Notes: generated from the letters alone by a model not told the origin. 64,000 bases of DNA from a bacterium (GCA_004321715.1 SGYN01000001.1:62001-126000), one strand, 5' to 3'. Shown: positions 144 through 17,911, counted from the stretch's first letter. A program made the numbers and translations.

Positions 144-3100
144 TTAATAAATAATATCTTTTGAACTTTTCTAGTATTTAATGCTTCTAGAACTACAAAA
201 TATGTTCCAGATGATACTGATTTTCCAAATCTATCTATTCCCAACCATTGAATATTATATTTTCCAGAACGTTTTTTCTCGTTTGATAACACAACTACTT
301 CATTACCAAGTAGATCAAAAATAGAAATTTTTACATCAGAAATATTGGGTAATTGGTAACTAATAGTTGTTGATGGATTAAATGGGTTCGGATATGCTGG
401 AAATATTTGAAATCCAATAGGAAGATTACCTTCTTCATTTATTGATAAAGAGGAAACATAATTTGTTGGTGGTTCAGTAGTAAAACGAATTGAACGTTGA
501 TTCTGTAGTTGAGCAGCTCCTGGTGCATATATATTATTAAATGCATATTGAATCCCTTCATTTTTCGTATGATCCTCTATCCCAATAGTTGAATAGTTTT
601 TATCTGCATCTATATCTGCAATATCTAGATAATGAAATTCTATTACTCCATCTCCACTTTCAGTAGGTTTAGCATCTTGATTATATAAATAAATAGCGAA
701 AGTCTCTTCCGTAACTTCATCAAAACCATTTAATGCTCTCGACCATTCAATAATATATCTTCCATTATTTTGTTCATATTTTGTAAATACTCTAATTGAA
801 TCATCATTTATTACTTCTAAATCATCCCAAAATGGAGCCAAAACTGCTTTAGGACCCAAGGCCATAGGTATAGTATAGTTATAAAAATAATCAATATCGC
901 AAGGTACAAATGAAGCCCATCCATTGGAATTAATTGTTAGCTCATCATATGTCTGATTAAAATATTTAAATTGAAATGGTAATTGCACTGTTACATGATC
1001 ATCATCATCCAACCTAAATTCAGAAGCACCACTTCCACCGTACATTGGGTCTAATTCAACCCAATCAAATAATGGTGATTGTAAATAGCTTGTGTCTGTA
1101 TTATCGTATGCCCAATAACCATACCAAGTTGGCATAATTGGCTGATTATCATTAAATGTGGGTCTAAAATCTTTTTGTTCTGAGTAAACTATTATTGTAT
1201 CCTTTTTCAAAGATAATTGATAGGAAAGAGAACTTCCATGAGAAATATTTCCTATTATAAATTCATGATTTATATTATTTATTTGAATATTAGAATAAGG
1301 ATTAATAGAAAAATATTCTCTATTATTGATTAAGATAGATAGCGAATCATCTAGTGAAGTTATTTCAACAAATACGCTGTCTAAACCTGTACCTGAAAAA
1401 TTATTCACTAATAAGGACAAATCACTAATTGTATTATTGATTATTTCATTACTGTTCAATTCTGTTGTCAGCACTAATGATCGAATGGGGATTGTAAAAT
1501 CATAATTCCAATCTTGATCATCAATTTCTATATTCAAAAAAATATTATCTTTATTATTTGAATTAGGTCGTACCACTATTGGTGTAAGGCTAGAACTAGT
1601 TTCTTCAGGATTAAGATCAGGGATCACAAAATTCGATGAAATGATTTGACAATTTTGCACTAATGAAATATTAACATTTCCATTATTTGATATAATTGTG
1701 GAAGTTCCTTGATTCTTAAATATTGGGTAAATATGAGTTATTTCTCCAATATCTAGCATATTTTCATTTACAGTTTGTAATTCATACCCAATTAACACTA
1801 AATCCGATTGATCATCCGTCACTTCTAATTCTATTTTACCCTGCACAAAACCATTTTTATTAGCATATACATCTATCATTATAATTTCATGCAAGTTAAC
1901 TGAAGCATAAAACTTTCCTTCTACATCAGAATTACCCTTAAATACAATACTATCATCAACCATCAAGGATATGATTGCATCTTGTACAGGATCTCCTTCT
2001 AAATTAAATACTGACAATTCTATATAGCCATCATTATTAGAACATGGTTCAGCAATTATTGAAAATTCATTTGGTCTTGTTAAGTACATTGATACCGAAG
2101 GATCTCCAACAATATTATAAACATGGAAATAGAACTCTTGTGCTTCTCCAACGCCATTTAGATTTGGAAACTCGCGAGTTAATCCCATTAGACCTGCATT
2201 CATAGCCGGACCTAATTCTACTATATTATCATCAAACATTGCATCAAACATATATGCGTTAATTACATTATTGTATTTTGTACTGGTATGCAAGTCAGAG
2301 GGGCCAACTATAGCGATTCCACCTTTTGGATTCGATGGGGTTCCTGCTCGCACTAACGCTTCGCCAAGACAAGGATCTACATTGTTTGCAAAATCATTAG
2401 AATTGCAAACAAAACTGGTAAAGATTGGAGTCATCCATCCATTATTTAGCGCAACAACATCTCCGACATGGAATTCAGGATAATGCCAACCATTAGCATC
2501 ACCCCAACCACGGTAGTTAACAATACCTACTCCATTATTGATATAATTTTGAATCAATGATGCACCCTGTTGAATTGGAGGATAAAATACTGTATCAACT
2601 GAAGTATAACCATTATCGTATAAGAGGTCTCGGACCCAATACGATGTCCACTTCGGAGTTATTGGTATTGGCACAGTATTACTATAGTTACCAGCAACAA
2701 CAAGCGCTTTATCCAACCAACTACTATTTGTAGATAAGGGTTGACGATGATAATTGATTGTTTTTCGAATCATAACAATTAGTTCAGAAATTGAGTCAAT
2801 CGAGAAACGTCCAATAAATACATCTGGAAAAAAGTCTTCTCCTAAAATATGAGTATATTTTTGATCTGTAACATCATTCTCAGGACCATAATAAAAAGAA
2901 GGCATGGCTGCAACGCCATCTACATCTCCAATCAGCAATACATATTCCAACATAGGATCGTCTAATAGCGTATTTTCTATTAACTCCTTAATTTCTTCAG
3001 CAGTTGATCCTACAGCAGAAAGTGGTTTAAGATACACATCAAAGCCTTGTGATCTTTTAAACGATACCAGATCACCAAGGTGATCCATCATATTATCAGG

Positions 3101-3292
3101 ACTAACAATTAAATATGATCCACGTTGAGAGTTTAGTTGACTGATTGGAATATTATACCAATCTGATATAAAAGTGGAATATGCAATCGGTATTGGTCCG
3201 CTAAGGATGTGGTTTAAATCTTTTCCCCTAAAAGAGCCTTCGTTTGCGAGCAAAATTGAGAGAAATAATATTATGGCTTTAATAATATACAT
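140..3292 (-). CDS. C25 (gingipain)-like secreted protein with T9SS sorting domain, catalytic His replaced
   Basis: 1050 residues. A signal peptide (about 1-16) is followed directly by a C25-type caspase-fold domain (about 57-405) without the long propeptide of the sister gene at 14315. The family landmarks are visible: LLIGDVDG near 119-126, NYRGWGD at 259-265, the nucleophile region TSFVCNSNDF with C296, EALVRAGTP near 311-319, and IVGDPS near 394-399. Where gingipains have the catalytic His (GHG) this protein has Trp263 (GWG), so classical Cys-His proteolysis is doubtful. Ig-like segments follow, then a YGYWAYD...SNGWASF beta-sandwich shared with the 14315 protein, then a T9SS C-terminal sorting domain (about 963-1050; YPNPFNPST). 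Inferred to be exported by T9SS and surface-attached. It overlaps the M14 gene upstream by 22 bases, suggesting co-translation. Confidence 0.85.
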   Translation of the reverse strand: MYIIKAIILFLSILLANEGSFRGKDLNHILSGPIPIAYSTFISDWYNIPISQLNSQRGSYLIVSPDNMMDHLGDLVSFKRSQGFDVYLKPLSAVGSTAEEIKELIENTLLDDPMLEYVLLIGDVDGVAAMPSFYYGPENDVTDQKYTHILGEDFFPDVFIGRFSIDSISELIVMIRKTINYHRQPLSTNSSWLDKALVVAGNYSNTVPIPITPKWTSYWVRDLLYDNGYTSVDTVFYPPIQQGASLIQNYINNGVGIVNYRGWGDANGWHYPEFHVGDVVALNNGWMTPIFTSFVCNSNDFANNVDPCLGEALVRAGTPSNPKGGIAIVGPSDLHTSTKYNNVINAYMFDAMFDDNIVELGPAMNAGLMGLTREFPNLNGVGEAQEFYFHVYNIVGDPSVSMYLTRPNEFSIIAEPCSNNDGYIELSVFNLEGDPVQDAIISLMVDDSIVFKGNSDVEGKFYASVNLHEIIMIDVYANKNGFVQGKIELEVTDDQSDLVLIGYELQTVNENMLDIGEITHIYPIFKNQGTSTIISNNGNVNISLVQNCQIISSNFVIPDLNPEETSSSLTPIVVRPNSNNKDNIFLNIEIDDQDWNYDFTIPIRSLVLTTELNSNEIINNTISDLSLLVNNFSGTGLDSVFVEITSLDDSLSILINNREYFSINPYSNIQINNINHEFIIGNISHGSSLSYQLSLKKDTIIVYSEQKDFRPTFNDNQPIMPTWYGYWAYDNTDTSYLQSPLFDWVELDPMYGGSGASEFRLDDDDHVTVQLPFQFKYFNQTYDELTINSNGWASFVPCDIDYFYNYTIPMALGPKAVLAPFWDDLEVINDDSIRVFTKYEQNNGRYIIEWSRALNGFDEVTEETFAIYLYNQDAKPTESGDGVIEFHYLDIADIDADKNYSTIGIEDHTKNEGIQYAFNNIYAPGAAQLQNQRSIRFTTEPPTNYVSSLSINEEGNLPIGFQIFPAYPNPFNPSTTISYQLPNISDVKISIFDLLGNEVVVLSNEKKRSGKYNIQWLGIDRFGKSVSSGTYFVVLEALNTRKVQKILFIK

Positions 3293-5619
3293 TTTCTATA
3301 AAAAGTTTTATTCTGAGAAACAATTTTAATAAAATAAACGCCAGATACAGGGTTTCGTTGATAATCATCTAAAAAGTTGAAACGCCAAATTTTCTTTTGG
3401 TTATATTGCGCTGGAATTTCACCAGCATATACTTCCTGCCCAAGTAAATTATACACCACAATGGAAGATGACTGAAGATTATTTATAAAATCAATATGTA
3501 TCATCCCGTTCGAAGGGTTTGGATAAATTTCACTCACAGAAACTGTTGAATTATTTTGATTAAAAGGAGATTGTTCATTAATAGAACTCAATGTAACGTT
3601 ATTTCCAGCAAATAATTTAATATTATATATATTATAACCTCTATAATTTATCGTTTTATCTCTTTTTAATTCAAGTTTTACTTTAATATTGCTAATCCCA
3701 TTTGTATCGACAGCTACTAATCTGTGTCTAGCGCTTTGATCCCATTGGTGTCCAGTAAAAAACATTTGATTGATAATTTTTGTTGAGTCCATAATTGAAA
3801 CTTTAATTGAATCATTATCCCATTCTAATTCCCACTGCTGATCTATTCTTAAAACTATCATATCCATTGGCTCAGGTAAAGAATACATTTCCGATTCTAA
3901 TACAAAAATAGAATCAAGAGAATCTGCATTAGCATAGAATAATTCATTTTGAGATCGAATCATGTTATTATCAAATACCCACGGTCCCTCAATGATGTTG
4001 AATGAAGAATTATCTGTTATGGGAAAACCAAATAAAGTTTGAACCCATAAAGGCTCTTGCATATTTATACTTAATTGAATGTCTGTATTAATAGTTATAT
4101 TTTGCATCCATGGGATAAGAAAGTCCCAATATAATGTGAATTGCCAGTCTCCTTGGGGGATTTGAAGAACATGATTGTGGGAAAAGTCCATTTGAATCGT
4201 ATCTGACATTTGTGCATTTTCTATTACCAAAAAAGGGTTTTCTTCTAGAACCACAGGATATTGAAAAGAAGAAATATTTATTTCAATATTATGTGTAGGT
4301 ATTGGAGTCATGGTTGCATTTTGTATTACGGGTGAACTTGAATTAGCTGTAACTGTAAAATTTAAGGGAAAATACCCTTTTTTTCTAAAATGCAAGCTAT
4401 AGGTACCTGGCTCAACAATTCTACGATATCTTCCAAATTCATCGCTTTTACGTGGCTTTTGAACCCCACTATGAAGTTCATCTATAGTTATAACTACATT
4501 ATCTAAGGGAGATCCAGTCTCTGCATTAGATATTATACCAGTTATTTGACACGCAACTGTATTATAACCAATTGCTCTATCCAATAGATAAAGCATCCCA
4601 GGGATTAAACGGTCAATCGTATCTTCAACTAATGCGCTATCTGGTTGCAGGTTGGCTGTTCCGCATTCGATAAGATATTGAAACGTCCCTGTTGCTTGAT
4701 AAAACCAATCATGAGCGTTTCCTCTTCTGGATGTACTATAACTAGATTGATAACTTTCAGAACTATTTTCTTTAATTATCCTTTCTGCAACTTGATTACC
4801 AATAAGTTTGATTGATGCATCATCAGGAGTCTTCTTATCCCCATTCCAATTCCAAGGACTAAATACTTTTTCAGAGAACCTTCCTGAACGTGCACTATGC
4901 CAAATAATGGAAAAAAGGAAATTATTTTCTATTGCAAGGTCTCTTAAGACTCGAGTCTCAGCTTCAGACCAAGGATTTAATCCTCTGTAATAATCATAGT
5001 GCGCAGCATAATCACTTGGATCAGGCTCCATAAAGGTATCCCCAAATACCCAATTAAAGTCAAAATTTCTATTTAAATCAACCCCATCAATATCTTCTCC
5101 AACTGCAGAATCATAATCAAAATAATTGTTTGGCCATGGACCTAGAGGGGAAAAGTCCTTTTTATTTTTTCTAAAACTTATATCTAAACCATTATGCACT
5201 ACATTGAGACCCTCAGGATTTAGAGTGGGAATGATCCAAGTTTCAATATTTTGTTTAATTATGTTCATATGTTGGATTTGCTCAGGTGGTGGATCAAGCA
5301 TAAGTAGTATCAATTCTAAAACTGCTTCTACTCCTAATATTTCTTCTGCATGTAACTGACCAACAAAAAGTACCCTAGGCTCATCTTCCTTAAATTCTAC
5401 ATTATCTGAAATCTTGACTGCATAAATTGGCAACTCTTCCATTTCACTATACCCAATCTGATAAACTCTAAACTCTGAATCAAAATCATTTACCTGAGTT
5501 AATGAATCAAGAAAACTTTCTATTTCAAAATACGAATGATAACGGGGATCCAGAGATTGAGCGTTAATAAAAATAATTAAAAAATTAATTAACAACAGGT
5601 TCCTTAATGGAAATCTCAT
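3271..5619 (-). CDS. Secreted M14 zinc carboxypeptidase with T9SS sorting domain
   Basis: 782 residues with a signal peptide (about 1-20, ending INAQ). The M14 metallocarboxypeptidase domain (about 25-350) has all expected residues: zinc ligands H90 and E93 in GQLHAEE, H241 in IIWHSARS, substrate-binding R150 and N183-R184 (DLNRNFDFNW), and catalytic E318 in LIECGTANL. It is followed by a carboxypeptidase-regulatory-like beta domain (about 358-435), a further beta-rich region and a T9SS sorting domain (IYPNPSNG, VYNLLGQEV, SGVYFIKI; about 700-782). It should remove C-terminal residues from proteins or peptides at the cell surface or in the medium. It lies between the WxDxR-repeat protein (21-base gap) and a C25-like protein (22-base overlap), so two protease-fold proteins are made together. 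The M14 call is firm; specificity is unknown. Confidence 0.93.
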   Translation of the reverse strand: MRFPLRNLLLINFLIIFINAQSLDPRYHSYFEIESFLDSLTQVNDFDSEFRVYQIGYSEMEELPIYAVKISDNVEFKEDEPRVLFVGQLHAEEILGVEAVLELILLMLDPPPEQIQHMNIIKQNIETWIIPTLNPEGLNVVHNGLDISFRKNKKDFSPLGPWPNNYFDYDSAVGEDIDGVDLNRNFDFNWVFGDTFMEPDPSDYAAHYDYYRGLNPWSEAETRVLRDLAIENNFLFSIIWHSARSGRFSEKVFSPWNWNGDKKTPDDASIKLIGNQVAERIIKENSSESYQSSYSTSRRGNAHDWFYQATGTFQYLIECGTANLQPDSALVEDTIDRLIPGMLYLLDRAIGYNTVACQITGIISNAETGSPLDNVVITIDELHSGVQKPRKSDEFGRYRRIVEPGTYSLHFRKKGYFPLNFTVTANSSSPVIQNATMTPIPTHNIEINISSFQYPVVLEENPFLVIENAQMSDTIQMDFSHNHVLQIPQGDWQFTLYWDFLIPWMQNITINTDIQLSINMQEPLWVQTLFGFPITDNSSFNIIEGPWVFDNNMIRSQNELFYANADSLDSIFVLESEMYSLPEPMDMIVLRIDQQWELEWDNDSIKVSIMDSTKIINQMFFTGHQWDQSARHRLVAVDTNGISNIKVKLELKRDKTINYRGYNIYNIKLFAGNNVTLSSINEQSPFNQNNSTVSVSEIYPNPSNGMIHIDFINNLQSSSIVVYNLLGQEVYAGEIPAQYNQKKIWRFNFLDDYQRNPVSGVYFIKIVSQNKTFYRKCILLKP

Positions 5620-5640
5620 AACAATTTTATAAATATTAGT

Positions 5641-8600
5641 TTATTTGAGATAAGTAATTTTTCTATTTGCTTGGTGGTTCAATGAATTGAATTGAAGAAA
5701 ATAGATTCCACTTGATAAATCCTGGCCATAATTGTTTTTAGCCATCCACGCAAATGAATGAATCCCATTACCATAGGGCATGATTTTCTCACTATATACC
5801 ATTTCACCCTTGATATTGAACACTGAAAAATTAATAGGTTCAAGATTTTTAACTTCGATTTCGATACTAATAGAATTATTAAAAGGATTCGGAAAAGCCT
5901 CACTAATAACAAATGATGTTGGCTGAAAATTTGATCTCTCTATACTCATTGGCTCAGAAAGACGTATTGCCTGACCATATAGATTTGCAAGATCAGCTTT
6001 TCCTGAACTACGCATATCTATCCAGTGTACAAACCATAAATTCTGTAAATTATCTTGACTCTCTTTTATCAGAGAAATCTTTGGATCTTTCTGATCGTGA
6101 TATTCCTGACATAATAAAATACCATTTTCTGAATAGATAATCCCATCCTCATAATGAATAACTTGCGCATAGATATCTAATCCACCTGAAAGTACGGGGT
6201 TATCACTTGAAAAGCCTCTCTCATCCTCCCATGCAACTAAATAATGCCCGCCATTGACATCCTTTAATGTAGGAGATTGCTGATATAATTCATTATTACA
6301 AATAATTACATTTTCATTTAGAAGAGTGTTATTTGATAAATCAATAAATTGACCAACAATATTTAAATCACTACCATTTTGAAAATCCTCCCATATAACT
6401 AAACTAGTCTGACTCGATTCATCAATAGCCAATTCTAAATTAATCTGATCATTTTCAGCTGATGTCAATAACAATCCGTTTGTCCACTCTAATGTCCCAT
6501 CCCAGTGAATAATATTTGCTTTAATATTTTTATTAAAATTGTATGATTCCTCCCATGCTACTAAAATCCCATTATCTGAATTAATAACTTGACCCTTTAA
6601 TTTTTCTGGATCACCAATCGATGATAGTGTGTAGCCTTCATTAGGCCAACCAGTTGCAATCTCTCCATTTAAATTATATTTTTGAAATTTTAAAGAACCA
6701 GCGCCCCAAATATCATCTACCCAAACCAATATAAAATTACTATCTGGTGTAGAATAGATCCCTTCAACATAATTATCTGTCCAGACTCCATCTAAAAGAG
6801 TTATACCAGAACTATCAAATTGTATCTGACCTTCCAAATCAAATTTCTGATAAAATAAATCAAAATCCACCTCATCCCGTATCTCTGACCATACAATACC
6901 TATACCATTATGAGCATTAAATAAATTAACTTTTCTTTGATCAGCTGTGCTTTGGTAGACTACAATACCTTCATTAGGCCATTGTGATTCAAAATCTAAA
7001 TTAAACTTATTGATCCTAATCAATTTTGCTCCGCTTTGGGCATCAAATGCTGCCGTAAAAAGATTGTTATCTGCTATAATAGATACTGGTTCATTCTCTA
7101 ACTGAAACGTATAACTATCAAATTGAGTTAATTCTTGACCATTTACTAGTGATGCGTTCAAACCATCCTCTTCAATATTTAAGCCAAAAACTTTTTTACC
7201 ATTTCTAGCATCGACCCAACTCATTACTACATTTTCATTTACATAATGCGCTTTTGGATATTCTACATCACCATCAAGCCCATTCATAGCAATAAGACCA
7301 TTATACTCAAAAGATATTGCATCTGAACTTGTTCGCTGAACTTTTAAATCTATACTACCATTTGATTCATCTGCAAAGACAACAAATGAGCCATTACTGT
7401 TATCACTTATTGAGTTTGGCATTGATTGATATCCGCTTGCATTAGATACATATTGAGCACTATCAAGAAGCAATGATCCCTCAGTCTGAATCGCCTGATA
7501 CATAATATCTACATTAGGAAAAGTACCACGCTCCCAATAAATAAATAACTCTCCGTTCACCCCTGCCGAAAACCTTGCGTTACGATCGTCACCGTTAAGA
7601 TCAAGTTGAATCCCATTTTGATCCCATAAAATATTTCCACTGGTAGAAATTTTTTGATAAAAATGATTACCTTCAGTTAGGTTGTTTCTGTAATCAGTCC
7701 ATTGAATAAATACTTGCCCTAACTGATTTCTTTTTACTCTTGGAGATGACTTGGAAGAATTATATGTACATAATTGTACTGGTTCTGTAAAAACCAATCC
7801 TTCGCTAGTTAAAAAATTAAAGTATATATCTGTGTTTTCAGTTCCTGACTGCCAAATAATGAATGAGGTATCATTATTCATATAAGTAGTTCTTGGTGTC
7901 GTTTCAAGCTCAGAAGTAGCAGAAACCTCAAGTCCTTCCTCTGCAAATATTTTTTCCATATTCATATTTATTTTTTGACAATATATATCATTCCCGCTTC
8001 CACTTCTTGTATCAGACCATATTATGGTTGCTTCATTATTTCCAGCATACTCTAAGCTCTTTGCTCCTTGATTTCCGTTCATTTGAATTATTGAAACACC
8101 ACTAGAGGGAGCAATAATTTCATAACTTGAAGATACGTGTGTACCGTAAATATCATCATCAAGAAAGTTTCTCTTATCTTGCCAAGTAACAAATACACCT
8201 CCAAGGCTATCTGTGCACATATTGATTGTCAAATGCCTTCCATCTATTCTAGCTAGCGCCTCTCCATTATCGTCCATCATTACGTTACCTTGATTATTAA
8301 TATGCTGAATAAAGATATCTCCTTCTTCATCAAAACGATAATCAACCCATGCAATAAAAGCACCCCCATTCCCATCCGTTATAGCAACAGGATCTTCCTG
8401 CCTACCCGGTAAATTTGTCACAGCAGCCCCTTCTGTACCCCATAATAATGATCCAGTGGAGTCTACTTTTTGGGCAAAAACATTTCTACTTCCATATCGT
8501 GTATCAGACCAAACAAATATCATGCTTCCTGCCTCACCTGGACATAAAGTACGTTGCCATTCAATATGGTCTCCCTGTCGTATTGGTATACCATTTTCCT

Positions 8601-8664
8601 GCCATATCATTTCCTGAGCAATCATTAATGATGAAATAACAAATAATATATAAAATATTCTCAT
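5641..8664 (-). CDS. T9SS-exported protein with repeated WxDxR beta-propeller-like units
   Basis: 1007 residues, signal peptide about 1-16 (ending IAQ). Most of the chain is built from a recurring unit in which a strand such as FVWSDTRYG or FIQWTDYRN is followed by a DIYxQKI-like strand and often by GxxLWGxxG. At least eight copies can be picked out by eye, spaced about 45-100 residues, which suggests one or two beta-propellers. The C-terminus is a T9SS sorting domain (AFPNPFNNS, VFNIKGEMV, SSGIYFLQF; about 918-1007). No catalytic motif is recognised, so I infer an extracellular binding or scaffold protein. It sits between the propeller lipoprotein (13-base gap) and the M14 peptidase. The hydrophobic start and sorting domain make the export call strong; the function is open. 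Confidence 0.8.
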   Translation of the reverse strand: MRIFYILFVISSLMIAQEMIWQENGIPIRQGDHIEWQRTLCPGEAGSMIFVWSDTRYGSRNVFAQKVDSTGSLLWGTEGAAVTNLPGRQEDPVAITDGNGGAFIAWVDYRFDEEGDIFIQHINNQGNVMMDDNGEALARIDGRHLTINMCTDSLGGVFVTWQDKRNFLDDDIYGTHVSSSYEIIAPSSGVSIIQMNGNQGAKSLEYAGNNEATIIWSDTRSGSGNDIYCQKINMNMEKIFAEEGLEVSATSELETTPRTTYMNNDTSFIIWQSGTENTDIYFNFLTSEGLVFTEPVQLCTYNSSKSSPRVKRNQLGQVFIQWTDYRNNLTEGNHFYQKISTSGNILWDQNGIQLDLNGDDRNARFSAGVNGELFIYWERGTFPNVDIMYQAIQTEGSLLLDSAQYVSNASGYQSMPNSISDNSNGSFVVFADESNGSIDLKVQRTSSDAISFEYNGLIAMNGLDGDVEYPKAHYVNENVVMSWVDARNGKKVFGLNIEEDGLNASLVNGQELTQFDSYTFQLENEPVSIIADNNLFTAAFDAQSGAKLIRINKFNLDFESQWPNEGIVVYQSTADQRKVNLFNAHNGIGIVWSEIRDEVDFDLFYQKFDLEGQIQFDSSGITLLDGVWTDNYVEGIYSTPDSNFILVWVDDIWGAGSLKFQKYNLNGEIATGWPNEGYTLSSIGDPEKLKGQVINSDNGILVAWEESYNFNKNIKANIIHWDGTLEWTNGLLLTSAENDQINLELAIDESSQTSLVIWEDFQNGSDLNIVGQFIDLSNNTLLNENVIICNNELYQQSPTLKDVNGGHYLVAWEDERGFSSDNPVLSGGLDIYAQVIHYEDGIIYSENGILLCQEYHDQKDPKISLIKESQDNLQNLWFVHWIDMRSSGKADLANLYGQAIRLSEPMSIERSNFQPTSFVISEAFPNPFNNSISIEIEVKNLEPINFSVFNIKGEMVYSEKIMPYGNGIHSFAWMAKNNYGQDLSSGIYFLQFNSLNHQANRKITYLK

Positions 8665-8677
8665 ATCCGTCCTTTAA

Positions 8678-9670
8678 TTAATCAATTTGAAAGATTTGAA
8701 GCCCTTCTCTAGTTGCCGCAAATAGATAATTATTATAAAACTCCGCATGATAAACATATCCAATATTATGGATCCCTTTCGATTCAATTTTCCCATTACT
8801 TATTCTATTATATAAGGACAAGCCATTTGCTGCACAAGATAAGACTATTTGATTACCTGATACTGTTACATGTGTCACAAAAAGATCTTTTCCAAACTGC
8901 ACTTTTTCCGGAGGATGATCAGGGTAATGTATTTCTAATTTATAGGCACCTTCTTCTTCGCATGCCACATAATATTCATTGTCCTTAAAAATAGTAATTG
9001 CTCTGGAATTCCCTGGAAGGTCTTCATGATATAAGCTACTTATAATGTTATCATTATTTTCAAAAACTTGTATCCCAAGTTGATCTATAGTTACTACAAT
9101 TAGATTTGAAAGAATATCTATTCCATTAGGATTACCTATAGTGGAAATTTCTATTCCAGAGGTATTAAACCAAAGGTTATAAAGCGAATCAAATTCAAAT
9201 GTACTTAGTTTGAGGCCATCATCATTATCCGCTGCATAGACAGTAAATGAATTGATACCGCTTGTAACAACACGAATTTCTTTTGTCTTCTCACTTGAAA
9301 ATTGACCTAAAATATTTACTGAATCAGGTGTAGATAAATCAATATGAATGGGGCGCTCATTACTTTCAAGTGCAAATAGTTGACCAATCGATGATTTAAA
9401 TTCTACCTGGGATATCTCTTTACTTACACCAAGATCTGATAATGATTTTTTCCACACCAATCTTGGAGATGTAATAGTAGAAATATCCCAAAGCTGAATA
9501 CCAGCTTGTCCTGCTGCCACAAAAACAGAGTCACCCACAACATAAACATCTCTACAATATCCCTCAGTATCAATCTCTACTATTCTATTTAGATTCCACA
9601 AACCCTCATCATTTGGTTCCATACAACTACAAAATAGAACAAGAGATAATATATAAATATAATTTTTCAT
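8678..9670 (-). CDS. Outer-surface lipoprotein with LVIVD-like beta-propeller
   Basis: 330 residues from the chosen ATG at 9670. An in-frame ATG seven codons upstream (9691) would add a short extension and overlap the previous gene by 14 bases; the internal start gives a compact lipoprotein signal (MKNYIYILSLVLF then CSC, with the lipid-modified Cys about residue 16) and is preferred. The mature part has repeats of the type VYVVGDSVFVAAGQAGIQLWDIS and NYLFAATREGLQIFQID, the pattern of LVIVD-type propellers: a strand, a glycine turn, then hydrophobic-xx-aspartate. This family is usually seen as surface-exposed binding proteins; no enzyme motif is visible. It lies between the outer-membrane barrel gene and the T9SS repeat protein. 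The lipoprotein call is good, the propeller call moderate. Confidence 0.72.
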   Translation of the reverse strand: MKNYIYILSLVLFCSCMEPNDEGLWNLNRIVEIDTEGYCRDVYVVGDSVFVAAGQAGIQLWDISTITSPRLVWKKSLSDLGVSKEISQVEFKSSIGQLFALESNERPIHIDLSTPDSVNILGQFSSEKTKEIRVVTSGINSFTVYAADNDDGLKLSTFEFDSLYNLWFNTSGIEISTIGNPNGIDILSNLIVVTIDQLGIQVFENNDNIISSLYHEDLPGNSRAITIFKDNEYYVACEEEGAYKLEIHYPDHPPEKVQFGKDLFVTHVTVSGNQIVLSCAANGLSLYNRISNGKIESKGIHNIGYVYHAEFYNNYLFAATREGLQIFQID

Positions 9671-9677
9671 TATAATA

Positions 9678-10718
9678 TTAATAACGATCATAAACTATCT
9701 TCCACTCAATAGATATCCAAGCTTGCCACTGATTAAAGGTCTTTAATTCTGAAACCCAATCAAATTGAGATTCTGTTTCACGGACACGATATCGTAGTGA
9801 AGACTTAATAAGAAATTGCTCACTAAAATTATATTCTGCCCAAAAATCTATTTTTTTATCTCTATGGCTTCGGCCACTATGAAGAGGGTCTCCCATCAAC
9901 TCCGCAACATAATATCTATGATCTTGTCTAATGGAAAAACCAAGTTTATTGATTATACCAATATCTTCATTATAAATAAGTGGTATATACCACTCAAAAT
10001 TTTTATAGGAACGATCTAACGAACTTGCTTTGGCCGTATTTCCATATGTTATGTTCTTCGCATCACCGTATGTTAAAGCAAATGCAATAGTTCCAAAATC
10101 ACTTAATTTTCTACTTATTTTAAAATACGATGATACAATATCAAGATCAAATTCTGTGAATGGTATATCAAAATATCTCTGATTATAACTAAGCTGCATA
10201 GTCAACCATTGTCCTTTTTTAAATGGATGTGTTAATTCTAATAGCTGCTCTCTATCGCTAAAGCTACAAGGCATTAAACTATCATTTGATATATCTCGAT
10301 CAATATAGTGTCGTATATAATATTTATTTAGGTGTCGTAATGAAAGGGATATTCTTTTATATGAACCCCATCTATATACACCTTTGATATTCCCACTCCA
10401 ATGCTGGCGGTTCTTATTATTTGAATAATTAGAGAAATTAGTTCTTGAGTAAATTTGAATGTATCGTCCACTTCGCGCTAATTGGAATTGTTTTTGTCCA
10501 ATGATGAAGAACCTTGAAAAATGAGAGTCAAAAGTATTTGTGCCTCCCATAATGTTTTTATTTGTGGACGCTTGACTTTTTTCTGTTTCAGATAAGCGCA
10601 ATACATTATCATCATAACCATTGATTAATCCTATTCTAAATGTTATAGGACCACTTAGATAATCTAAAAGATTCTGACCATTTAAAAATGAAATAAGCAG
10701 GATTATAATGATTTTCAT
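9678..10718 (-). CDS. Predicted outer-membrane beta-barrel protein downstream of pgs genes
   Basis: 346 residues, cleavable signal about 1-14 (ISFLNG then QN). After a strand containing GLINGYDDNVLRLSE, the chain alternates polar and aromatic residues in many strands (SGNIKGVYRWGSY, ISLSLRHLNKYY, TMQLSYNQRYF, TIAFALTYGDA, IKSSLRYRVRE) and ends WISIEWKIVYDRY, typical of Gram-negative barrels. I do not recognise a named family. Its start overlaps the stop of the 290-residue periplasmic gene (ATGA, 10715-10718), and that gene follows pgsW, so it may be the outer-membrane exit or anchor for the poly-gamma-glutamate made by PgsBC. That role is inference; the barrel topology is a pattern judgement. 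Confidence 0.68.
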   Translation of the reverse strand: MKIIIILLISFLNGQNLLDYLSGPITFRIGLINGYDDNVLRLSETEKSQASTNKNIMGGTNTFDSHFSRFFIIGQKQFQLARSGRYIQIYSRTNFSNYSNNKNRQHWSGNIKGVYRWGSYKRISLSLRHLNKYYIRHYIDRDISNDSLMPCSFSDREQLLELTHPFKKGQWLTMQLSYNQRYFDIPFTEFDLDIVSSYFKISRKLSDFGTIAFALTYGDAKNITYGNTAKASSLDRSYKNFEWYIPLIYNEDIGIINKLGFSIRQDHRYYVAELMGDPLHSGRSHRDKKIDFWAEYNFSEQFLIKSSLRYRVRETESQFDWVSELKTFNQWQAWISIEWKIVYDRY

Positions 10719-11587
10719 TTATACTCTTGAAACCTGGTTAGAACGTTTTTATTCTTATCAACAACTTCTACTGTAATCACCTGATTTCCATGAGGGATAT
10801 CTATTTCACAGGTCCGCCATTTTCCTGGAACTTTATCTTTAATATCTTCAATATAAGAGGTTGAGGATCTTTCCGATGAAAGAATAAATGTACCTAGAAC
10901 TTTTATTCCACTCTTTACACGCAATCTATAACTATCATTCGAACCCATATATTCATCAAAAATCAGACGGGAAAGAATCCGTAATTTCTTGGGTCCTTTT
11001 AAATCCAGTTGTAAAGGTCGATTGTTTTTTAACTCATAATAAGAAACAGGCTTTTCACCAACTATCACTTTATGATTTGATTGAAACACCATGGGTTTCA
11101 ATTCACTCCTATTCTTGTTTGGTCTTTCAAAATCTTTTTTGAGAAAACGCACCAATACTGGATAATCATTACTTTCTAAGGACTTTAATAATATCCTATG
11201 ATTACCTTCTGAGATATTGAAAAAATAGTTACCCGAATAAGTATAATAATGATTTGGATGTTGCACTGAACGAATGGACTTTTGAATTTTATATCTATGG
11301 TTTATCACTATAGGATCTTCATCATCTATTAATAATAAATATGAAAACTTCTGACTCTTTTTTGTTTTTTTGTTTGATGGGTATCTAGCAATCAATTCTA
11401 ATCTAGCAGGTCCATAAATTTCATAAACCAATGAATCTTCTGATAGTACCGTATAGGCTCTTCTCTTATCTGAAATTTTGAGTATTTCTTTTTTCTCTCC
11501 ACCGTGACTAGGCTTTAAAAGCTCAGCATACGCTGTTGAATAAAGAAAAATAAAGAAAAATATTTTAAATAATACTTTCGGGATCAT
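10715..11587 (-). CDS. Periplasmic protein with two tandem copies of an unknown beta domain
   Basis: 290 residues with a signal peptide (about 1-21, ending TAYA). Two halves align by eye: residues 44-148 and 182-286. Anchors are YEIYGPARLELIAR (55-68) against LDLKGPKKLRILSR (194-207), and ISEGNHRILLKSLESND (125-141) against IPHGNQVITVEVVDKNK (264-280), with VRF and TRF closing each copy. Each half looks like an all-beta sandwich, possibly carbohydrate- or polymer-binding, but I do not recognise it. It starts inside the 3' end of pgsW (23-base overlap) and overlaps the barrel gene by 4 bases, so it is tightly tied to the poly-gamma-glutamate genes. A periplasmic chaperone or adaptor for the polymer is inference. 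Confidence 0.65.
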   Translation of the reverse strand: MIPKVLFKIFFFIFLYSTAYAELLKPSHGGEKKEILKISDKRRAYTVLSEDSLVYEIYGPARLELIARYPSNKKTKKSQKFSYLLLIDDEDPIVINHRYKIQKSIRSVQHPNHYYTYSGNYFFNISEGNHRILLKSLESNDYPVLVRFLKKDFERPNKNRSELKPMVFQSNHKVIVGEKPVSYYELKNNRPLQLDLKGPKKLRILSRLIFDEYMGSNDSYRLRVKSGIKVLGTFILSSERSSTSYIEDIKDKVPGKWRTCEIDIPHGNQVITVEVVDKNKNVLTRFQEYK

Positions 11588-12698
11588 GATTTGTCATTAT
11601 TTCTTTAATTTGTTGCTTGCTTTTCCATCCAGCAAATACCACAGATAATAATACAATTAATAAACTCAAGATTGTTATCTTTAGATCAAATTTTTCAATA
11701 GCATATAAAGGTCCTACCCCTATATCTGGTAATGGTATTGGTGCATATATCATACCTAAATCATCTGTTAATTTTTGAATATTTAGAATATGAATAAGGG
11801 GAATATCTTTTTTAGAAAATCTTACAACGGCTCCATTGATTCCATCCCCTCTCGTTATCTGCTCAATATCTTTTCTATATACAATTCCTGGCTGTAATAA
11901 TCGTAAGTTAAAACTTGTTCCTAGACTAGCAACTCCTCCTCCAATATTTACCACCGCCTTATAATTATTATTACCAAAATATTTCATTCTCTGATCAATA
12001 TTATTTTCTAATCCCTCACCAGATATCAAAGGTAATTTATTCTTATTAATATTTTCTCGAATTAATTCTCTACCTCTAGGACTTAATAATCTACCCTGAT
12101 CATTCCTTCCTCCTATAGAAGCTGCAATAGACCTAGTCGATATATAACCGCTATTAAACAAAATTGTTTCCATATCTAACCAGGTCATATTGGGATCATT
12201 TGCGCCCCACTGTGAAGCTCCTATTGAAGAAATAATAAAAGGATGAATATTCATAGCATTACAAGCAATCAACATTGCCATATTAGCACCGGGCATAGAG
12301 CCAGTTACCATTACCGCAATTGTATCTCCACTATTAAGATTTGCTCGATCTAATAATTCTACCATTGCAGCAGCAAAATTTGGATCCAAAGTAGTTAATT
12401 TTGCATCCACATCGCCTTCGTCTGTGGTTATTAAACTAAATTGAGAACCAACAAGACCAGTTTCATTTGGATCATTCTCTTGATCAATAAATACACCTTT
12501 TTCCATTCTAAAATCTTTTAGCATATTCATTGATTCTCGCATTTTTATTGCAGCATTTATTTTTGTCTCATATGTATTTGAAACAAATTCTTTTCTAGAA
12601 AAATAAGCAAATGCGTATGCAGTAATAGAAATAACTGCAAGTAATACAAGAGTTGTTGTTTTCTGAATTACAGGTTTAAATGGTTTATCAGGTTTCAA
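11565..12698 (-). CDS. pgsW: PgsW-type poly-gamma-glutamate system protein
   Basis: 377 residues. An N-terminal membrane segment (about 16-34), a large alpha/beta domain outside the membrane and a C-terminal membrane segment (about 335-357) match the PgsW family, known from its consistent pairing with pgsB and pgsC in several Gram-negative phyla. Recognisable stretches are VMVTGSMPGANMAML, SSIGASQWGAN, a glycine cluster in VVNIGGGVASLGTS, and GDGINGAVVRF. The biochemical role of PgsW is not established. It starts within the last 11 bases of pgsC and is followed by an overlapping periplasmic protein gene. The family call rests on the motifs plus position after pgsBC. Confidence 0.82.
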   Translation of the reverse strand: MKPDKPFKPVIQKTTTLVLLAVISITAYAFAYFSRKEFVSNTYETKINAAIKMRESMNMLKDFRMEKGVFIDQENDPNETGLVGSQFSLITTDEGDVDAKLTTLDPNFAAAMVELLDRANLNSGDTIAVMVTGSMPGANMAMLIACNAMNIHPFIISSIGASQWGANDPNMTWLDMETILFNSGYISTRSIAASIGGRNDQGRLLSPRGRELIRENINKNKLPLISGEGLENNIDQRMKYFGNNNYKAVVNIGGGVASLGTSFNLRLLQPGIVYRKDIEQITRGDGINGAVVRFSKKDIPLIHILNIQKLTDDLGMIYAPIPLPDIGVGPLYAIEKFDLKITILSLLIVLLSVVFAGWKSKQQIKEIMTNHDPESII

Positions 12699-13131
12699 TT
12701 ACACCTCCCGATATTACCATAATAGTTAATTTTACTAAAACTGAAGTAATCATAATAGCCGATATTGTTCTTATGATACCTTGTCTATCCATCCAACTAG
12801 CTATTAAACCAGGAATAATATTACCAATAACTTCATATGAAAAGGTGTCGATTGGTGAAAAAAAATAGTTTCGGGATAAATATCCTATTATAAAACCAAG
12901 CAATAAAGTTAATACTAATCGTCTTTTGCCATATATAAATATAAAATTTCCTAATGCTCTAATTATAATAATGACAATTATCGAAGCAATAAATGTCATT
13001 ATTATTTGATCTGGATTTTGCAAATGTAAAGCAATGTATCCAGGTACAATTACACCTCCTGCAGTCACTCCAAGTGTCTCAGTAAGTATTAAGCTTAATG
13101 CAATTCCTAGACCAACTGTAATCTCAATCAT
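12688..13131 (-). CDS. pgsC: Poly-gamma-glutamate synthase membrane subunit PgsC/CapC
   Basis: 147 residues, almost entirely hydrophobic, with four or five membrane helices (about 3-20, 22-40, 44-62, 70-88, 95-145). The starting MIEITVGLGIALSLILTE and GVTAGGVIVPGYIAL are the hallmark of PgsC/CapC, the integral membrane partner of PgsB in ATP-dependent gamma-glutamate polymerisation. Length matches the family (about 150). Its ATG overlaps the end of pgsB by 8 bases and its end overlaps pgsW by 11 bases, a strongly coupled trio. The PgsA/CapA subunit usual in Bacillus is absent from this window. Confidence 0.93.
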   Translation of the reverse strand: MIEITVGLGIALSLILTETLGVTAGGVIVPGYIALHLQNPDQIIMTFIASIIVIIIIRALGNFIFIYGKRRLVLTLLLGFIIGYLSRNYFFSPIDTFSYEVIGNIIPGLIASWMDRQGIIRTISAIMITSVLVKLTIMVISGGVIET

Positions 13132-14305
13132 TTGATTTGAGCTCCATAAGTGTATTAATTAAACCTTGACCAAACCCTACTTGATTTCCAATTGCAAATA
13201 TAAGCGATTCAGAAGGAAGCTCTCTAAACTTATCAATAGATGAGTCTATTGGTTCATCTTCTTGGACTAATTCCGTAATTGTATTGGGCGAAAAACTAAT
13301 AATTTTATTTACAAGAGCTTCTATTTTTTTCCCTCTAATTATTGCTTTTTGAGGTTTGATTTCCTTATAAATTAGTTCCAATAATTGATGTGTTCTACTT
13401 CGACGATCCTGTCGACAGTTTAAATAAATAGTAAAATAGTTTTTTGATGAAAACATACTTTTGATAATATTCCAAATTTGTAAAGTAGAAACTGGATCAT
13501 TAGCTGCCATAGAATTAATAAAATAGATTTTACCTTTACCGAAATCAATATTATTAACAACTAAAGCACCAGGATCAGGCTGTGAGTTCTGCATACCCTC
13601 TAGAGCAGTCTTTTTATTTATGCCTAATTCATTGCACACCTTTAGTGCTACAGCAATATTTTGAGGATGCTCAATGTACGGAAACCCTTCTAAATGAGTA
13701 CTTTTAACTGTGTTTTCATCTGCAATAATATATTCAGTGTCTCTAACCTCAGAAATATGGGAAACTGCACTAACTATATTTTTTTCTCCAAACACTACCT
13801 TACCATTGTATGGAATAGTATTTCCTAATGATTTCTTAACATCATCTATAGTTGGTCCCATTTCTTCAAGATGATCAGGTCTCGCATTTGTGATAACCCC
13901 AATATGTGATTGTATCATTTGGTGTTCTGATATCCATTGATATTCTGGCTGAACTGCCATGCATTCCATTACAACAGCATCAGGTTTTTCCTTAGAAAAT
14001 AATTGCATTAGTTTGATTTGCTCCCCTATTGATGCAGATCGCAATCTATGAATAACTCTGTCTCTACCTTTGGAATCAATAATTCTTGGTGCAGTACCTG
14101 TTGTTTTAGCAAAGGTTCGAATACCGCCTGCACGCAATCCAGCAGCAATTAGACGAGTTACACTTGATTTACCTCGAGTCCCATTCACATGCACTCTTAA
14201 TGGGATACTAGAAATTGCACGCTGATGATTCACTCTTTCTAAATATCCTATTAGAATTAAAATTAAAACAATAGTTCCAAGAAAAAAAGGGGGCGATATG
14301 ATCAT
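13124..14305 (-). CDS. pgsB: Poly-gamma-glutamate synthase ligase subunit PgsB/CapB
   Basis: 393 residues. An N-terminal membrane anchor (about 5-21) precedes a Mur-ligase-like amide ligase domain. The P-loop is VNGTRGKSSVTRL (about 40-52), then KTTGTAPRII and RSASIGEQ, then MECMAVQPEYQW and ITNARPDHLEEMG, all typical of PgsB. The enzyme activates the gamma-carboxyl of glutamate with ATP and extends poly-gamma-glutamate at the inner membrane with PgsC. Length fits the family (about 390). The start has AGGAA six bases upstream and lies nine bases after the C25-like gene, so it is probably transcribed with that gene and possibly with the pilus genes. Identification is firm. Confidence 0.95.
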   Translation of the reverse strand: MIISPPFFLGTIVLILILIGYLERVNHQRAISSIPLRVHVNGTRGKSSVTRLIAAGLRAGGIRTFAKTTGTAPRIIDSKGRDRVIHRLRSASIGEQIKLMQLFSKEKPDAVVMECMAVQPEYQWISEHQMIQSHIGVITNARPDHLEEMGPTIDDVKKSLGNTIPYNGKVVFGEKNIVSAVSHISEVRDTEYIIADENTVKSTHLEGFPYIEHPQNIAVALKVCNELGINKKTALEGMQNSQPDPGALVVNNIDFGKGKIYFINSMAANDPVSTLQIWNIIKSMFSSKNYFTIYLNCRQDRRSRTHQLLELIYKEIKPQKAIIRGKKIEALVNKIISFSPNTITELVQEDEPIDSSIDKFRELPSESLIFAIGNQVGFGQGLINTLMELKSND

Positions 14306-14314
14306 GAGAATTTC

Positions 14315-17300
14315 CTAATAACCCATTATTTCCCGAACAATACTTATCATGTCCAGAAAATTTATGATTTCGTCAGCATTCACGTCTGCAAGATAAGGAT
14401 TTAATCCTCCTGTATCACTTGATTGGACAAAATCAACGAGGGTAAGTACATCTGTAATATTTAATAATCCATCCTGATTTATATCTCCACGCTGGAGAAT
14501 ATTTGCTCCTCTCGTAGTAAATAGTATTGCAGTAGAATCTTGAAGAGGCATGGCTGAGATAGGATAAGTATTATTAAAAGTATATTCAAGCCCAATTGTC
14601 TCACTTTGATCTTCCAGACCTATGGTACAGTAGTTTCCATGTACTTGACCCCAACCATAATTACCGGTTGAAGTATTATTAAAATCTGCATATTGCATCA
14701 CTATCTCTCCATCACCTGTGGGCGTGAAATAATGTTGAGAATCCTTAAGAATCAACTGGAAATTTTCCAGACTATTATTATCATATGTTCTAAGATGCGA
14801 CCACTGAATGACAAACTGATGGTTCAATTCATCATACCATTTATAAACACGTCCCCCACTAGTTGTTGTATTTAGGTCATCCCAAAATACAGCTATCATC
14901 GGCGATGGCCCACCTGGACCAGGTATAGGATAATTCCTAAATGATTTCATATCTGTAGAACCCATAGATACCCACCCATTACTGGAAACACTAATTTGGT
15001 CATAATCTATACCATAAAATTTAAATGTAAATGGTAGGTTCACTGTAGTTACATCATCTTGATTATCTCCATAATCACTCAATGATAACTGAGTACCAGG
15101 TCCATCATACAATGGGTCAATTTCTATCCAATTAAAATAGGGTGCATTTGAATATAGTATATCTCCACTATCATATGCATAATATCCATATGAATCTGGG
15201 CCAAGTGGGTCATCTACCTCTTTAACACCAATCCGTAATGGAATATTTGTACTCTGTACTGCACCATCAGAAGATTCCAGATCTATAAATAATTCAATTA
15301 CAGTTCCTGGAATTACATCTTCTGCAGCAATAACTTCAAATTTATCATTAGTATTAATTGAAAAATTATTTTGTACAATTAATGGCCAAAATCCTTGGTC
15401 ATCTATAATTTCTAAACCAGCATAATTTGAATATAAACGACCATTTACATTGTTTGCCATCATTGAGCCAATATTTGAAATCTCTATTGAAATTTCAGCA
15501 GTTTCACCAGGATCAAGATGATCATTACCAAAAACTGGATCATCATGTACATATACTTTATCTGCAAGTAATCTAGTTCCTGAAATAGAAAGTTGAATTT
15601 GACTTAACCAAGAGGAACCATTTATATCTTTAATTAATAATCGTAGTGGGAAATCTTCATTTTCCAATATTCCTGATTCTACTTCAAAGACAAATGACTG
15701 TCCTTCATTTCCCGTCATTCCACTTATCAAAGTTCCAATATATATGCTATCAATACTATAATTGATGAATCCATCACCACCAATTAGCTTACAATAGACA
15801 CCTTCAGCATCATCTATACCATAATTATATATAGGAATAGTTAACTCAATAGTCTCTCCACCATCGATCATGCCATTGGAATTTCCTGCGGATAAATCAT
15901 TCATGTCATCATCAATGGTATATCCACCTTCAATAGAATTTACATTTACACTTTGTTCGTTGATCTGAAATTGCCCTTGATACGGAACAAAGTTTCTTTT
16001 TATAACTGTCAGATTAACGCCACCTAATAAAGTAGAGCCTACCGGTAACGTAACATGACCATTATTATCAGTATAACCAGATTCAAATATAATATCATTT
16101 CCTTTTAAGATCGTAACGTAGGCATCTTCTACTGGTTCATTAAAATAATCCATCACTTCCACATCGTAATAATTAGTCCCTGATGAAATCACGTTTTCAT
16201 GAGATACTGTAAAAGATTGTGGGGTATCTGTCCACATCTGCAAAGCAGGGTCACCTATAAGGTTATTCCAATGAGTAAAAATAGTTACCCAATCATTTGG
16301 ATTATCTGGATAATTAAGATACAAATTTAATTTACCTCTTGCTAAAGCAGCTCCTGCAGTTTCCATTTTATCAACGAAAACACCATAATAAAAACCCATA
16401 TCAACAGCATTATTAAACATCGTATGTGTGCCAATTGTTGCAGTACCAATGGAAGCCACTGCACCCTTAGGCTGAGTTGGGGTTCCTGCTCTAACAAAAG
16501 TTTCTGATAAAGCGGTACCAGAAGAAAAAGAACCAGTCCCGCAAGTAATAACAGTAGCAATTGGTAATTTAAATCCATTTGAAAGACTATTTATATTACC
16601 AGAATTAAAACCACTGACTCCATAATATCCGCGATAATTGAAAAAAGTTAAGCCTGCATTTAAATCCGCAACCATCTGCGAGGGAAATGGTGAATTATAA
16701 ATTGTTCGCACATCATCGTACCCATGGTATTCCATTAACTCTTTAATATTTTCACTCGTTATAACACAAGACACTCCTGATGTTGACGCATCCCCTACGA
16801 GCGATGCACTATGAAACCAATTTTGACTTAAATATGGATTACTTTCATATTGAACAGTTTTATTTATGATTGTAGCAAGTTCTGTTGTTGAACTAAACGA
16901 TAATCTACCAATAATAACCTCAGGTAATATATCATTACCAACTAATTGAGAATACGGGTGATCTCCTTCTCCATTATAGCTACTTAAACTCTCAAAATAT
17001 GTTGGTATTGAATAGCTTCCATTAGCATCTCCCACTAAGGCAATATATTCTGGAGGATTGTCCCAAGTACTATATGCATTACTAATATAGTTTTTAATGG
17101 AACTAGTACTATTTCCAGTTGTACTTGTTGAAACATGATTGACTACATATCCAGTTCGATGTCGCCAATCGAATAAAATTTCAAGATTCGCCATCAAATT
17201 TGATGAATTACTTGGTAAAATATATAGTATTGATGGTTTCTGATAATCATCATCATTTGTTGATCGGCTATAATTCACAACTAAAGCTTCGTATAACGGC

Positions 17301-17911
17301 TCAAAAACTCGAGAGATTCTATCTGGGGTTTGAACGGGTTCAATTTCATCAACCTCTATTAATTCAATATCTGCTGATGTTATAATCTCTAGTCTACGAG
17401 ATAATGGATAATATTTAAATGGAGTAATAGAAGCTTTAACTACTGGTATATCTCTAAAAACAAATGTATTGGATACTTCTCCTTGATTTTCAGGATATTT
17501 CATATCTGAAGTATATAATTCTATATTTCTTTTGAATAAGGCGTTCGTCTCATCCGATGGTCTATCCCAAGTTTGATGTGGCAATATATCTATATTATTA
17601 ATCCACTCTGAAGAAACAACATTTACATTAATAGCATAAGACTTATTCGGAGCTACCTGATAAAATGTTGTTATAGTTGGAAGGGTTGGATCACCTTCCT
17701 CTGATTTTAATCCACCAAATGGAATGACTGGCTCTTTAAATATTTGCCCATCAATAGTTACATCTTTTATTTCATAACTATCTAAAGAAAAATGTATTCT
17801 ATCATCATCCAAAATAGAAAATCCACTTGGAGACTTTCTTATTTCATCTTGACTAAATAATAAAGATGAAGTTGTTAGTAGTGATAATATTATTTTATTA
17901 ATAGTTCCCAT
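14315..17911 (-). CDS. C25 (gingipain)-like secreted protein ending in a dockerin domain, catalytic His replaced
   Basis: 1198 residues, signal peptide about 1-20. Unlike the protein at 140-3292 it keeps an N-terminal gingipain-type propeptide region (about 30-215). The C25 domain follows (about 225-560): YIALVGDANGSY, NYRGYYG (425-431), VITCGTGSF with the presumed nucleophile C457, and ETFVRAGTP. The catalytic His of GHG is replaced by Tyr (GYY). Ig-like regions and the YGYYAYD...SNGWVSMG beta-sandwich come next. The last 58 residues (1141-1198) are a type I dockerin-like pair of calcium loops (GDINQDGLLNITD and ADVNADEIINFLD). No T9SS sorting domain is present, so its retention may rely on dockerin binding. 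It lies between pilD and pgsB with gaps of 18 and 9 bases. Confidence 0.83.
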   Translation of the reverse strand: MGTINKIILSLLTTSSLLFSQDEIRKSPSGFSILDDDRIHFSLDSYEIKDVTIDGQIFKEPVIPFGGLKSEEGDPTLPTITTFYQVAPNKSYAINVNVVSSEWINNIDILPHQTWDRPSDETNALFKRNIELYTSDMKYPENQGEVSNTFVFRDIPVVKASITPFKYYPLSRRLEIITSADIELIEVDEIEPVQTPDRISRVFEPLYEALVVNYSRSTNDDDYQKPSILYILPSNSSNLMANLEILFDWRHRTGYVVNHVSTSTTGNSTSSIKNYISNAYSTWDNPPEYIALVGDANGSYSIPTYFESLSSYNGEGDHPYSQLVGNDILPEVIIGRLSFSSTTELATIINKTVQYESNPYLSQNWFHSASLVGDASTSGVSCVITSENIKELMEYHGYDDVRTIYNSPFPSQMVADLNAGLTFFNYRGYYGVSGFNSGNINSLSNGFKLPIATVITCGTGSFSSGTALSETFVRAGTPTQPKGAVASIGTATIGTHTMFNNAVDMGFYYGVFVDKMETAGAALARGKLNLYLNYPDNPNDWVTIFTHWNNLIGDPALQMWTDTPQSFTVSHENVISSGTNYYDVEVMDYFNEPVEDAYVTILKGNDIIFESGYTDNNGHVTLPVGSTLLGGVNLTVIKRNFVPYQGQFQINEQSVNVNSIEGGYTIDDDMNDLSAGNSNGMIDGGETIELTIPIYNYGIDDAEGVYCKLIGGDGFINYSIDSIYIGTLISGMTGNEGQSFVFEVESGILENEDFPLRLLIKDINGSSWLSQIQLSISGTRLLADKVYVHDDPVFGNDHLDPGETAEISIEISNIGSMMANNVNGRLYSNYAGLEIIDDQGFWPLIVQNNFSINTNDKFEVIAAEDVIPGTVIELFIDLESSDGAVQSTNIPLRIGVKEVDDPLGPDSYGYYAYDSGDILYSNAPYFNWIEIDPLYDGPGTQLSLSDYGDNQDDVTTVNLPFTFKFYGIDYDQISVSSNGWVSMGSTDMKSFRNYPIPGPGGPSPMIAVFWDDLNTTTSGGRVYKWYDELNHQFVIQWSHLRTYDNNSLENFQLILKDSQHYFTPTGDGEIVMQYADFNNTSTGNYGWGQVHGNYCTIGLEDQSETIGLEYTFNNTYPISAMPLQDSTAILFTTRGANILQRGDINQDGLLNITDVLTLVDFVQSSDTGGLNPYLADVNADEIINFLDMISIVREIMGY

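What the first reader, a model, noticed from the sequence alone, without database searches (positions are those of the whole stretch)
9678..14305. Gram-negative pgsB-pgsC-pgsW module with its own periplasmic protein and outer-membrane barrel but no PgsA
PgsBC make poly-gamma-glutamate at the inner membrane; a Gram-negative producer needs a route across the outer membrane. Directly coupled genes encode a signal-peptide protein with a duplicated unknown domain and a predicted barrel. The usual PgsA/CapA is absent. This could be an undescribed export or anchoring pathway for the polymer, though it might also serve an unrelated role.
Basis: partly seen in the sequence, partly recalled or inferred. 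Interest (0 to 1): 0.7.

Follow-up and report, generated by a model that had tools for sequence, protein, structure and literature searches.

The report
Polyglutamate synthesis operon with outer-membrane barrel
Marine Marinimicrobia bacteria carry a strictly conserved gene set that appears to make the polymer polyglutamate and pass it through both cell membranes; the two predicted export proteins belong to undescribed families, although neither the product nor the export has been shown.

Summary
The window lies in a Candidatus Neomarinimicrobiota MAG. On the minus strand, overlapping genes encode PgsB, PgsC and PgsW (NCBIfam matches above cut-off), then a 290-aa signal-peptide protein (PER) and a 346-aa barrel (OMB) that match no Pfam, NCBIfam or PDB sequence. 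Among 245 genomes of the phylum, PER and PgsW co-occur in 93 and are both missing from 144; the other eight are contig ends, one divergent PER, three real PER losses, or a second pgsBCW type. No complete OMB gene was found without pgs genes. PER folds as two duplicated, strongly basic jelly rolls; OMB as a 14-strand porin-sized barrel with an arginine-rich lumen. CapA is absent from this genome and from all 14 module-bearing genomes of its family. An upstream C25 peptidase-like gene and a downstream lipoprotein largely travel with the module. Best reading: PgsBCW makes poly-gamma-glutamate and PER plus OMB carry it across the periplasm and outer membrane. Synthesis is inferred from homology; export from linkage, fold and charge. 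A second pgsBCW type lacks PER and OMB, so these are an added module, not universal partners.

The parts
13124..14305 (-). pgsB, Mur-ligase-like poly-gamma-glutamate synthase (P-loop VNGTRGKSS)
   Evidence: TIGR04012 417 bits, cut-off 222.7; Mur_ligase_M
12688..13131 (-). pgsC, membrane subunit
   Evidence: TIGR04011 128 bits, cut-off 96.45; Caps_synth_CapC
11565..12698 (-). pgsW, inner-membrane protein with a large middle domain between N- and C-terminal hydrophobic stretches
   Evidence: TIGR04332 309 bits, cut-off 100; no solved relative
10715..11587 (-). PER: signal-peptide periplasmic protein, two duplicated jelly-roll domains, strongly basic
   Evidence: no family match; model pLDDT 88.7, Foldseek CBM51/CBM22-like; duplication hhalign 96.9%; charge +17
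9678..10718 (-). OMB: 14-strand outer-membrane barrel with arginine-rich lumen
   Evidence: model pLDDT 88.2, pTM 0.82; Foldseek CymA, OprD, OmpG; lumen charges; no family match
8678..9691 (-). predicted lipoprotein (weak LVIVD-repeat match), overlaps the end of OMB; probable accessory part
   Evidence: present next to OMB in 20 of 22 long loci; in relatives found almost only in module-bearing genomes; LVIVD E 0.02, below cut-off
14315..17911 (-). C25 (gingipain-like) peptidase homologue with propeptide and C-terminal dockerin-like domain; probable accessory part
   Evidence: Peptidase_C25 173 bits, Propeptide_C25; next to pgsB in 21 of 22 long loci; the close orthologue is missing from module-less genomes of the family

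Best explanation
PgsB with PgsC polymerises glutamate into a gamma-linked polyglutamate at the inner membrane and passes it outward, with PgsW taking the extracytoplasmic place that PgsA/CapA has in Bacillus (inferred from family membership). PER, a basic periplasmic protein of two tandem jelly rolls, binds the anionic chain and guides it through the periplasm. OMB, a monomeric 14-strand barrel with an arginine-rich lumen, lets it cross the outer membrane to form a capsule or surface layer. The coupled lipoprotein and the secreted C25 protein probably act on the outer surface. Shown here: genes, coupling, co-inheritance, predicted folds and charge. Inferred: product, direction of transport and surface role.
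For: Family matches for PgsB, PgsC, PgsW. Overlapping genes conserved in 48 to 56 relatives. Co-occurrence of PgsW and PER in 245 genomes, 93 both, 144 neither, and of OMB with them. All 56 named PER loci have pgsW upstream, 55 directly next to PER. PER jelly rolls resemble carbohydrate-binding modules; its charge is +17 in the window and +16.5 on average in 47 homologues. OMB has 14 strands, CymA/OmpG-like, with 21 Lys/Arg to 12 Asp/Glu on the inward-facing strand positions and invariant R136, R268, R311, R313.
Against: No polymer has been measured. Three genomes (G173-G175) keep pgsBCW and OMB but have no recognisable PER, so PER is not strictly needed. A second pgsBCW type in the same phylum and in Cetobacterium, which also has an outer membrane, has neither PER nor OMB, so pgsBCW does not always need them. 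CymA- and OmpG-like barrels mostly serve uptake (own knowledge). No control was run for the lumen-charge estimate, and Foldseek TM-scores are modest (about 0.25 for PER, 0.5 for OMB). Neighbouring genes include type IX cargo with no evident link to polyglutamate.
Confidence: 0.6

Rival explanations
1. The polymer stays in the periplasm or is recycled: PER holds it there and OMB is an uptake porin for polyglutamate fragments or other anionic oligomers.
For: Nearest solved barrels (CymA, OprD family) are uptake channels. The second pgsBCW type sits with gamma-glutamyltransferase and deacylase/peptidase-like genes, and in Cetobacterium with a TRAP permease, so turnover does occur with this enzyme set.
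Against: Main-type loci show no polyglutamate hydrolase, gamma-glutamyltransferase or inner-membrane transporter among the conserved neighbours.
Confidence: 0.17
2. The polymer serves as a surface handle for type IX secreted proteins, comparable in role to A-LPS in Porphyromonas: the C25 homologue, the lipoprotein and the type IX cargo genes downstream are the attached or attaching parts.
For: C25 gene next to pgsB in 21 of 22 long loci, and type A sorting-domain genes downstream conserved in all 22. C25 orthologue and module are present and absent together in the family. The type IX translocon SprA is in 60 of 61 relatives.
Against: SprA occurs equally in genomes without the module, so the module is not needed for type IX secretion. 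The C25 protein is far below the PorU cut-off (30.6 of 420 bits).
Confidence: 0.1
3. PgsBCW makes a different product (another gamma-peptide or a glutamylated envelope component), and PER-OMB handles that.
For: PgsB belongs to the Mur-ligase superfamily, with weak matches to MurE, MurD and FolC; no racemase or hydrolase marks the main-type locus.
Against: PgsB, PgsC and PgsW all exceed curated cut-offs, and loci of the second type carry glutamate-racemase-like and gamma-glutamyltransferase genes.
Confidence: 0.1
4. PER and OMB are unrelated envelope genes that merely share an operon.
For: Gene order is conserved over about 18 kb, including type IV pilus genes, so neighbourhood alone is weak evidence.
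Against: Joint presence and absence across the phylum, and flanks that differ between families while pgsBCW-PER-OMB stays together.
Confidence: 0.03

Closest known systems
PgsBCA(E)/CapBCA(E) polyglutamate synthetase of Bacillus
   Same: PgsB and PgsC above curated cut-offs; membrane-bound polymerase genes in one operon
   Different: No PgsA/CapA found; PgsW instead; added periplasmic protein and outer-membrane barrel
pgsBCW loci of Fusobacteriota (Cetobacterium somerae plasmid p1)
   Same: pgsB-pgsC-pgsW order, no CapA among the neighbouring genes, diderm host
   Different: No PER or OMB; flanked by gamma-glutamyltransferase, TRAP permease and succinylglutamate desuccinylase genes
Synthase-dependent exopolysaccharide export (alginate AlgE/AlgK, PNAG PgaA, cellulose BcsC)
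   Same: Inner-membrane synthase plus periplasmic protein plus outer-membrane barrel in one operon (comparison from own knowledge)
   Different: Amide-linked amino-acid polymer expected; all-beta jelly rolls, not a TPR scaffold; 14 strands, not 16 to 18; no sequence similarity found
CymA / OmpG / OprD monomeric porins
   Same: Barrel architecture and size (Foldseek E down to 9.5e-9)
   Different: About 10% identity, no family match; TM-score about 0.5; conserved arginine-rich lumen and obligate linkage to pgs genes

Membership tests
Poly-gamma-glutamate synthetase (Pgs/Cap) | PgsB and PgsC above curated cut-offs, adjacent | tested here: met
   417.5 of 222.7 and 127.9 of 96.45 bits; overlapping genes
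Poly-gamma-glutamate synthetase (Pgs/Cap) | PgsA/CapA (PF09587) in the operon or genome | tested here: not met
   None in this genome or in the 14 module-bearing genomes of the family; where other families have PF09587 it was on other contigs than pgsW in the cases compared
Poly-gamma-glutamate synthetase (Pgs/Cap) | Makes gamma-linked polyglutamate | not testable with these tools
   Needs chemistry
pgsBCW type | PgsW (TIGR04332) next to pgsB and pgsC | tested here: met
   309 of 100 bits
Synthase-dependent exopolysaccharide secretion | Inner-membrane synthase and outer-membrane barrel in one operon | tested here: met
   (barrel by prediction)
Synthase-dependent exopolysaccharide secretion | Periplasmic TPR scaffold | tested here: not met
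   PER model is all beta apart from the signal helix; no TPR domain in the neighbours scanned
Synthase-dependent exopolysaccharide secretion | c-di-GMP control of the synthase | not tested
   -
CymA/OmpG-like monomeric porins | 14-strand barrel | tested here: met
   14 strands in the model
CymA/OmpG-like monomeric porins | Sequence homology to the family | tested here: not met
   No Pfam/NCBIfam match; profile against PDB sequences gives only one chance match at E 0.29
PorU type IX sortase (for the C25 neighbour) | NF033707 above cut-off | tested here: not met
   30.6 bits against a cut-off of 420

The most novel reading that the evidence does not exclude
The module is a surface-assembly system in which exported polyglutamate is not just a capsule but the anchor for type IX secreted proteins, with the C25 homologue, the lipoprotein and the downstream cargo genes as its working parts: a polyamide counterpart of A-LPS attachment.
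Probability: 0.08. Interest if true: 0.85.

Novelty: new variant of a known kind. Interest (0 to 1): 0.62.

Why it matters
How a diderm bacterium moves polyglutamate across its outer membrane has no described answer that I could find; reviews name Fusobacterium nucleatum as the Gram-negative producer (PMC3815933, PMC4928254) and describe PgsBCAE. This locus names two candidate proteins from undescribed families with a plausible division of labour and phylum-wide co-inheritance, so the question becomes a simple co-expression and gene-removal test. It also predicts an anionic, nitrogen-rich amino-acid polymer at the surface of uncultivated marine bacteria.

Tried and rejected
No empty insertion site could be shown: module-less genomes lack a close orthologue of the flanking prepilin peptidase. 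That the module is a part of type IX secretion was rejected because SprA is in 60 of 61 relatives whether or not they carry it. That the C25 protein is PorU was rejected: 30.6 of 420 bits. No solved relative of PgsW, PER or OMB was found by sequence. Paper searches for PgsW, for Marinimicrobia with polyglutamate, and for Marinimicrobia with type IX secretion and capsule found nothing. No lumen-charge control with unrelated barrels was made.

Full report
What is there. The window lies in a metagenome-assembled genome of Candidatus Neomarinimicrobiota (phylum inferred from the named relatives; G000 has 1.63 Mb in 46 contigs and is 67% complete). On the minus strand five overlapping genes run pgsB, pgsC, pgsW, PER, OMB. 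PgsB, PgsC and PgsW exceed the curated NCBIfam cut-offs; PER (290 aa) and OMB (346 aa) match no Pfam or NCBIfam family at useful E-values and no PDB sequence even as profiles, apart from one chance match.

Co-inheritance. In 61 relatives PER and OMB occur in the same 26 genomes; PgsB over its cut-off is in 25 of these, and in the 26th (G058) the contig ends inside pgsW. The other genomes have none of the three, except G013, whose contig holds a pgsB fragment at its end next to the C25 gene. Across the 245 genomes of the phylum PgsW is in 100 and PER in 94; 93 have both and 144 neither. Seven genomes have PgsW without a PER match. G141 ends right after pgsW. G164 has a divergent PER (E 4e-22) and an OMB. 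G173 to G175 keep OMB but no recognisable PER (locus of G173 read). G079 and G235 carry a different, second pgsBCW type. The one with PER only (G233) ends at the contig edge. OMB is found in 97 genomes; the one among them without PgsW or PER (G149) is a 44-residue match. A scan of 84,980 species found 56 PER loci, titled Marinimicrobia, FCB group or unnamed bacteria, all with pgsW upstream, 55 of them directly next to PER. The scan does not exclude divergent relatives in other phyla.

Coupling and extent. Gene overlaps are conserved: median spacing -8, -8, -23 and -1 nt. In 22 relatives with long flanks the order C25, pgsB, pgsC, pgsW, PER, OMB, lipoprotein, 1007-aa type IX cargo, M14 carboxypeptidase is nearly invariant. 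In the window's family the close C25 orthologue and the lipoprotein track the module. In G232, G233, G237 and G205 a C25-like gene lies downstream of OMB instead. Flanks thus move while pgsBCW-PER-OMB stays together.

Folds. PER was modelled from 47 sequences with pLDDT 88.7: a signal helix and two all-beta domains. The best PDB matches are tandem CBM51 and CBM22 modules and other jelly rolls; full-length TM-scores are low (about 0.25), so only the domain type is claimed. The two halves are homologous to each other (96.9%, E 1.8e-10). OMB was modelled from 42 sequences with pLDDT 88.2 and pTM 0.82: 14 strands, nearest CymA, OprD and OmpG.

Charge. PER carries +17 after the signal peptide, with a mean of +16.5 in 47 homologues. 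Thirteen other predicted secreted proteins of the window range from -160 to +10 with a median of -31. In OMB the inward-facing strand positions hold on average 21 Lys/Arg and 12 Asp/Glu, with R136, R268, R311 and R313 invariant. This is what a path for a polyanion would need, but inward-facing was assigned from hydrophobic alternation on a model, and no control barrel was run.

CapA. No PF09587 match in this genome or in any of the 14 module-bearing genomes of its family, eight of them at least 90% complete, though 7 of 14 control genomes ring. Elsewhere in the phylum PF09587 proteins occur, often as domains of proteins of about 1600 aa, on other contigs than pgsW in the cases compared. The missing PgsA is real in this family.

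Second pgsBCW type. L194, L195 and L196 hold divergent pgsBCW without PER or OMB. Their neighbours are gamma-glutamyltransferase and aspartoacylase-like genes, in L195 and L196 also a glutamate-racemase-like lipoprotein and a secreted protein, which in L195 has an N-formylglutamate amidohydrolase-like domain. The Cetobacterium plasmid locus has the same flavour. This supports glutamate-polymer chemistry for PgsBCW and shows that PER and OMB are an addition specific to the main type.

Mechanism. Most likely PgsBC makes and extrudes polyglutamate, PgsW stands in for PgsA, PER binds the chain in the periplasm and OMB conducts it outward. Direction is inferred from the biosynthetic context. The loss of PER in G173 to G175 with OMB kept suggests that OMB is the core and PER an aid.

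Known context. Reviews describe PgsBCAE and list F. nucleatum as the Gram-negative producer, without an outer-membrane route in the passages read (PMC3815933; PMC4928254). No paper on PgsW was found. I rate this a new variant of a known kind: known synthase, unknown export proteins.

Noticed in passing
L194 5709-9959, L195 6601-13985, L196 847-8330; L190 1400-8807: A second, divergent pgsBCW type without PER or OMB, grouped with gamma-glutamyltransferase and aspartoacylase-like genes, and in two loci with a racemase-like lipoprotein and a further secreted protein (N-formylglutamate amidohydrolase-like in L195); similar to the Cetobacterium plasmid locus.
   Followed up: partly
window 14315-17911: The C25 homologue next to pgsB keeps a conserved Cys (TCGTGSF) in 13 relatives, but the segment where gingipains are expected to have their His reads NYRG(Y/W/F) (His position from own knowledge); it may be inactive. 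It ends in a dockerin-like domain, with no type IX tail found.
   Followed up: partly
window 143-8664: Three neighbouring genes (C25, M14 carboxypeptidase, 1007-aa protein) carry type IX sorting domains and the last two are conserved downstream of the module; SprA is in 60 of 61 relatives.
   Followed up: partly
L193 3386-5804 (G173): PgsW is enlarged to about 460 aa with an acidic insertion and PER is missing, while OMB follows directly.
   Followed up: partly
G047 C81:2109-4586: A second pgsB/pgsW copy, weaker but over both cut-offs, in a genome that also has the main module.
   Followed up: no
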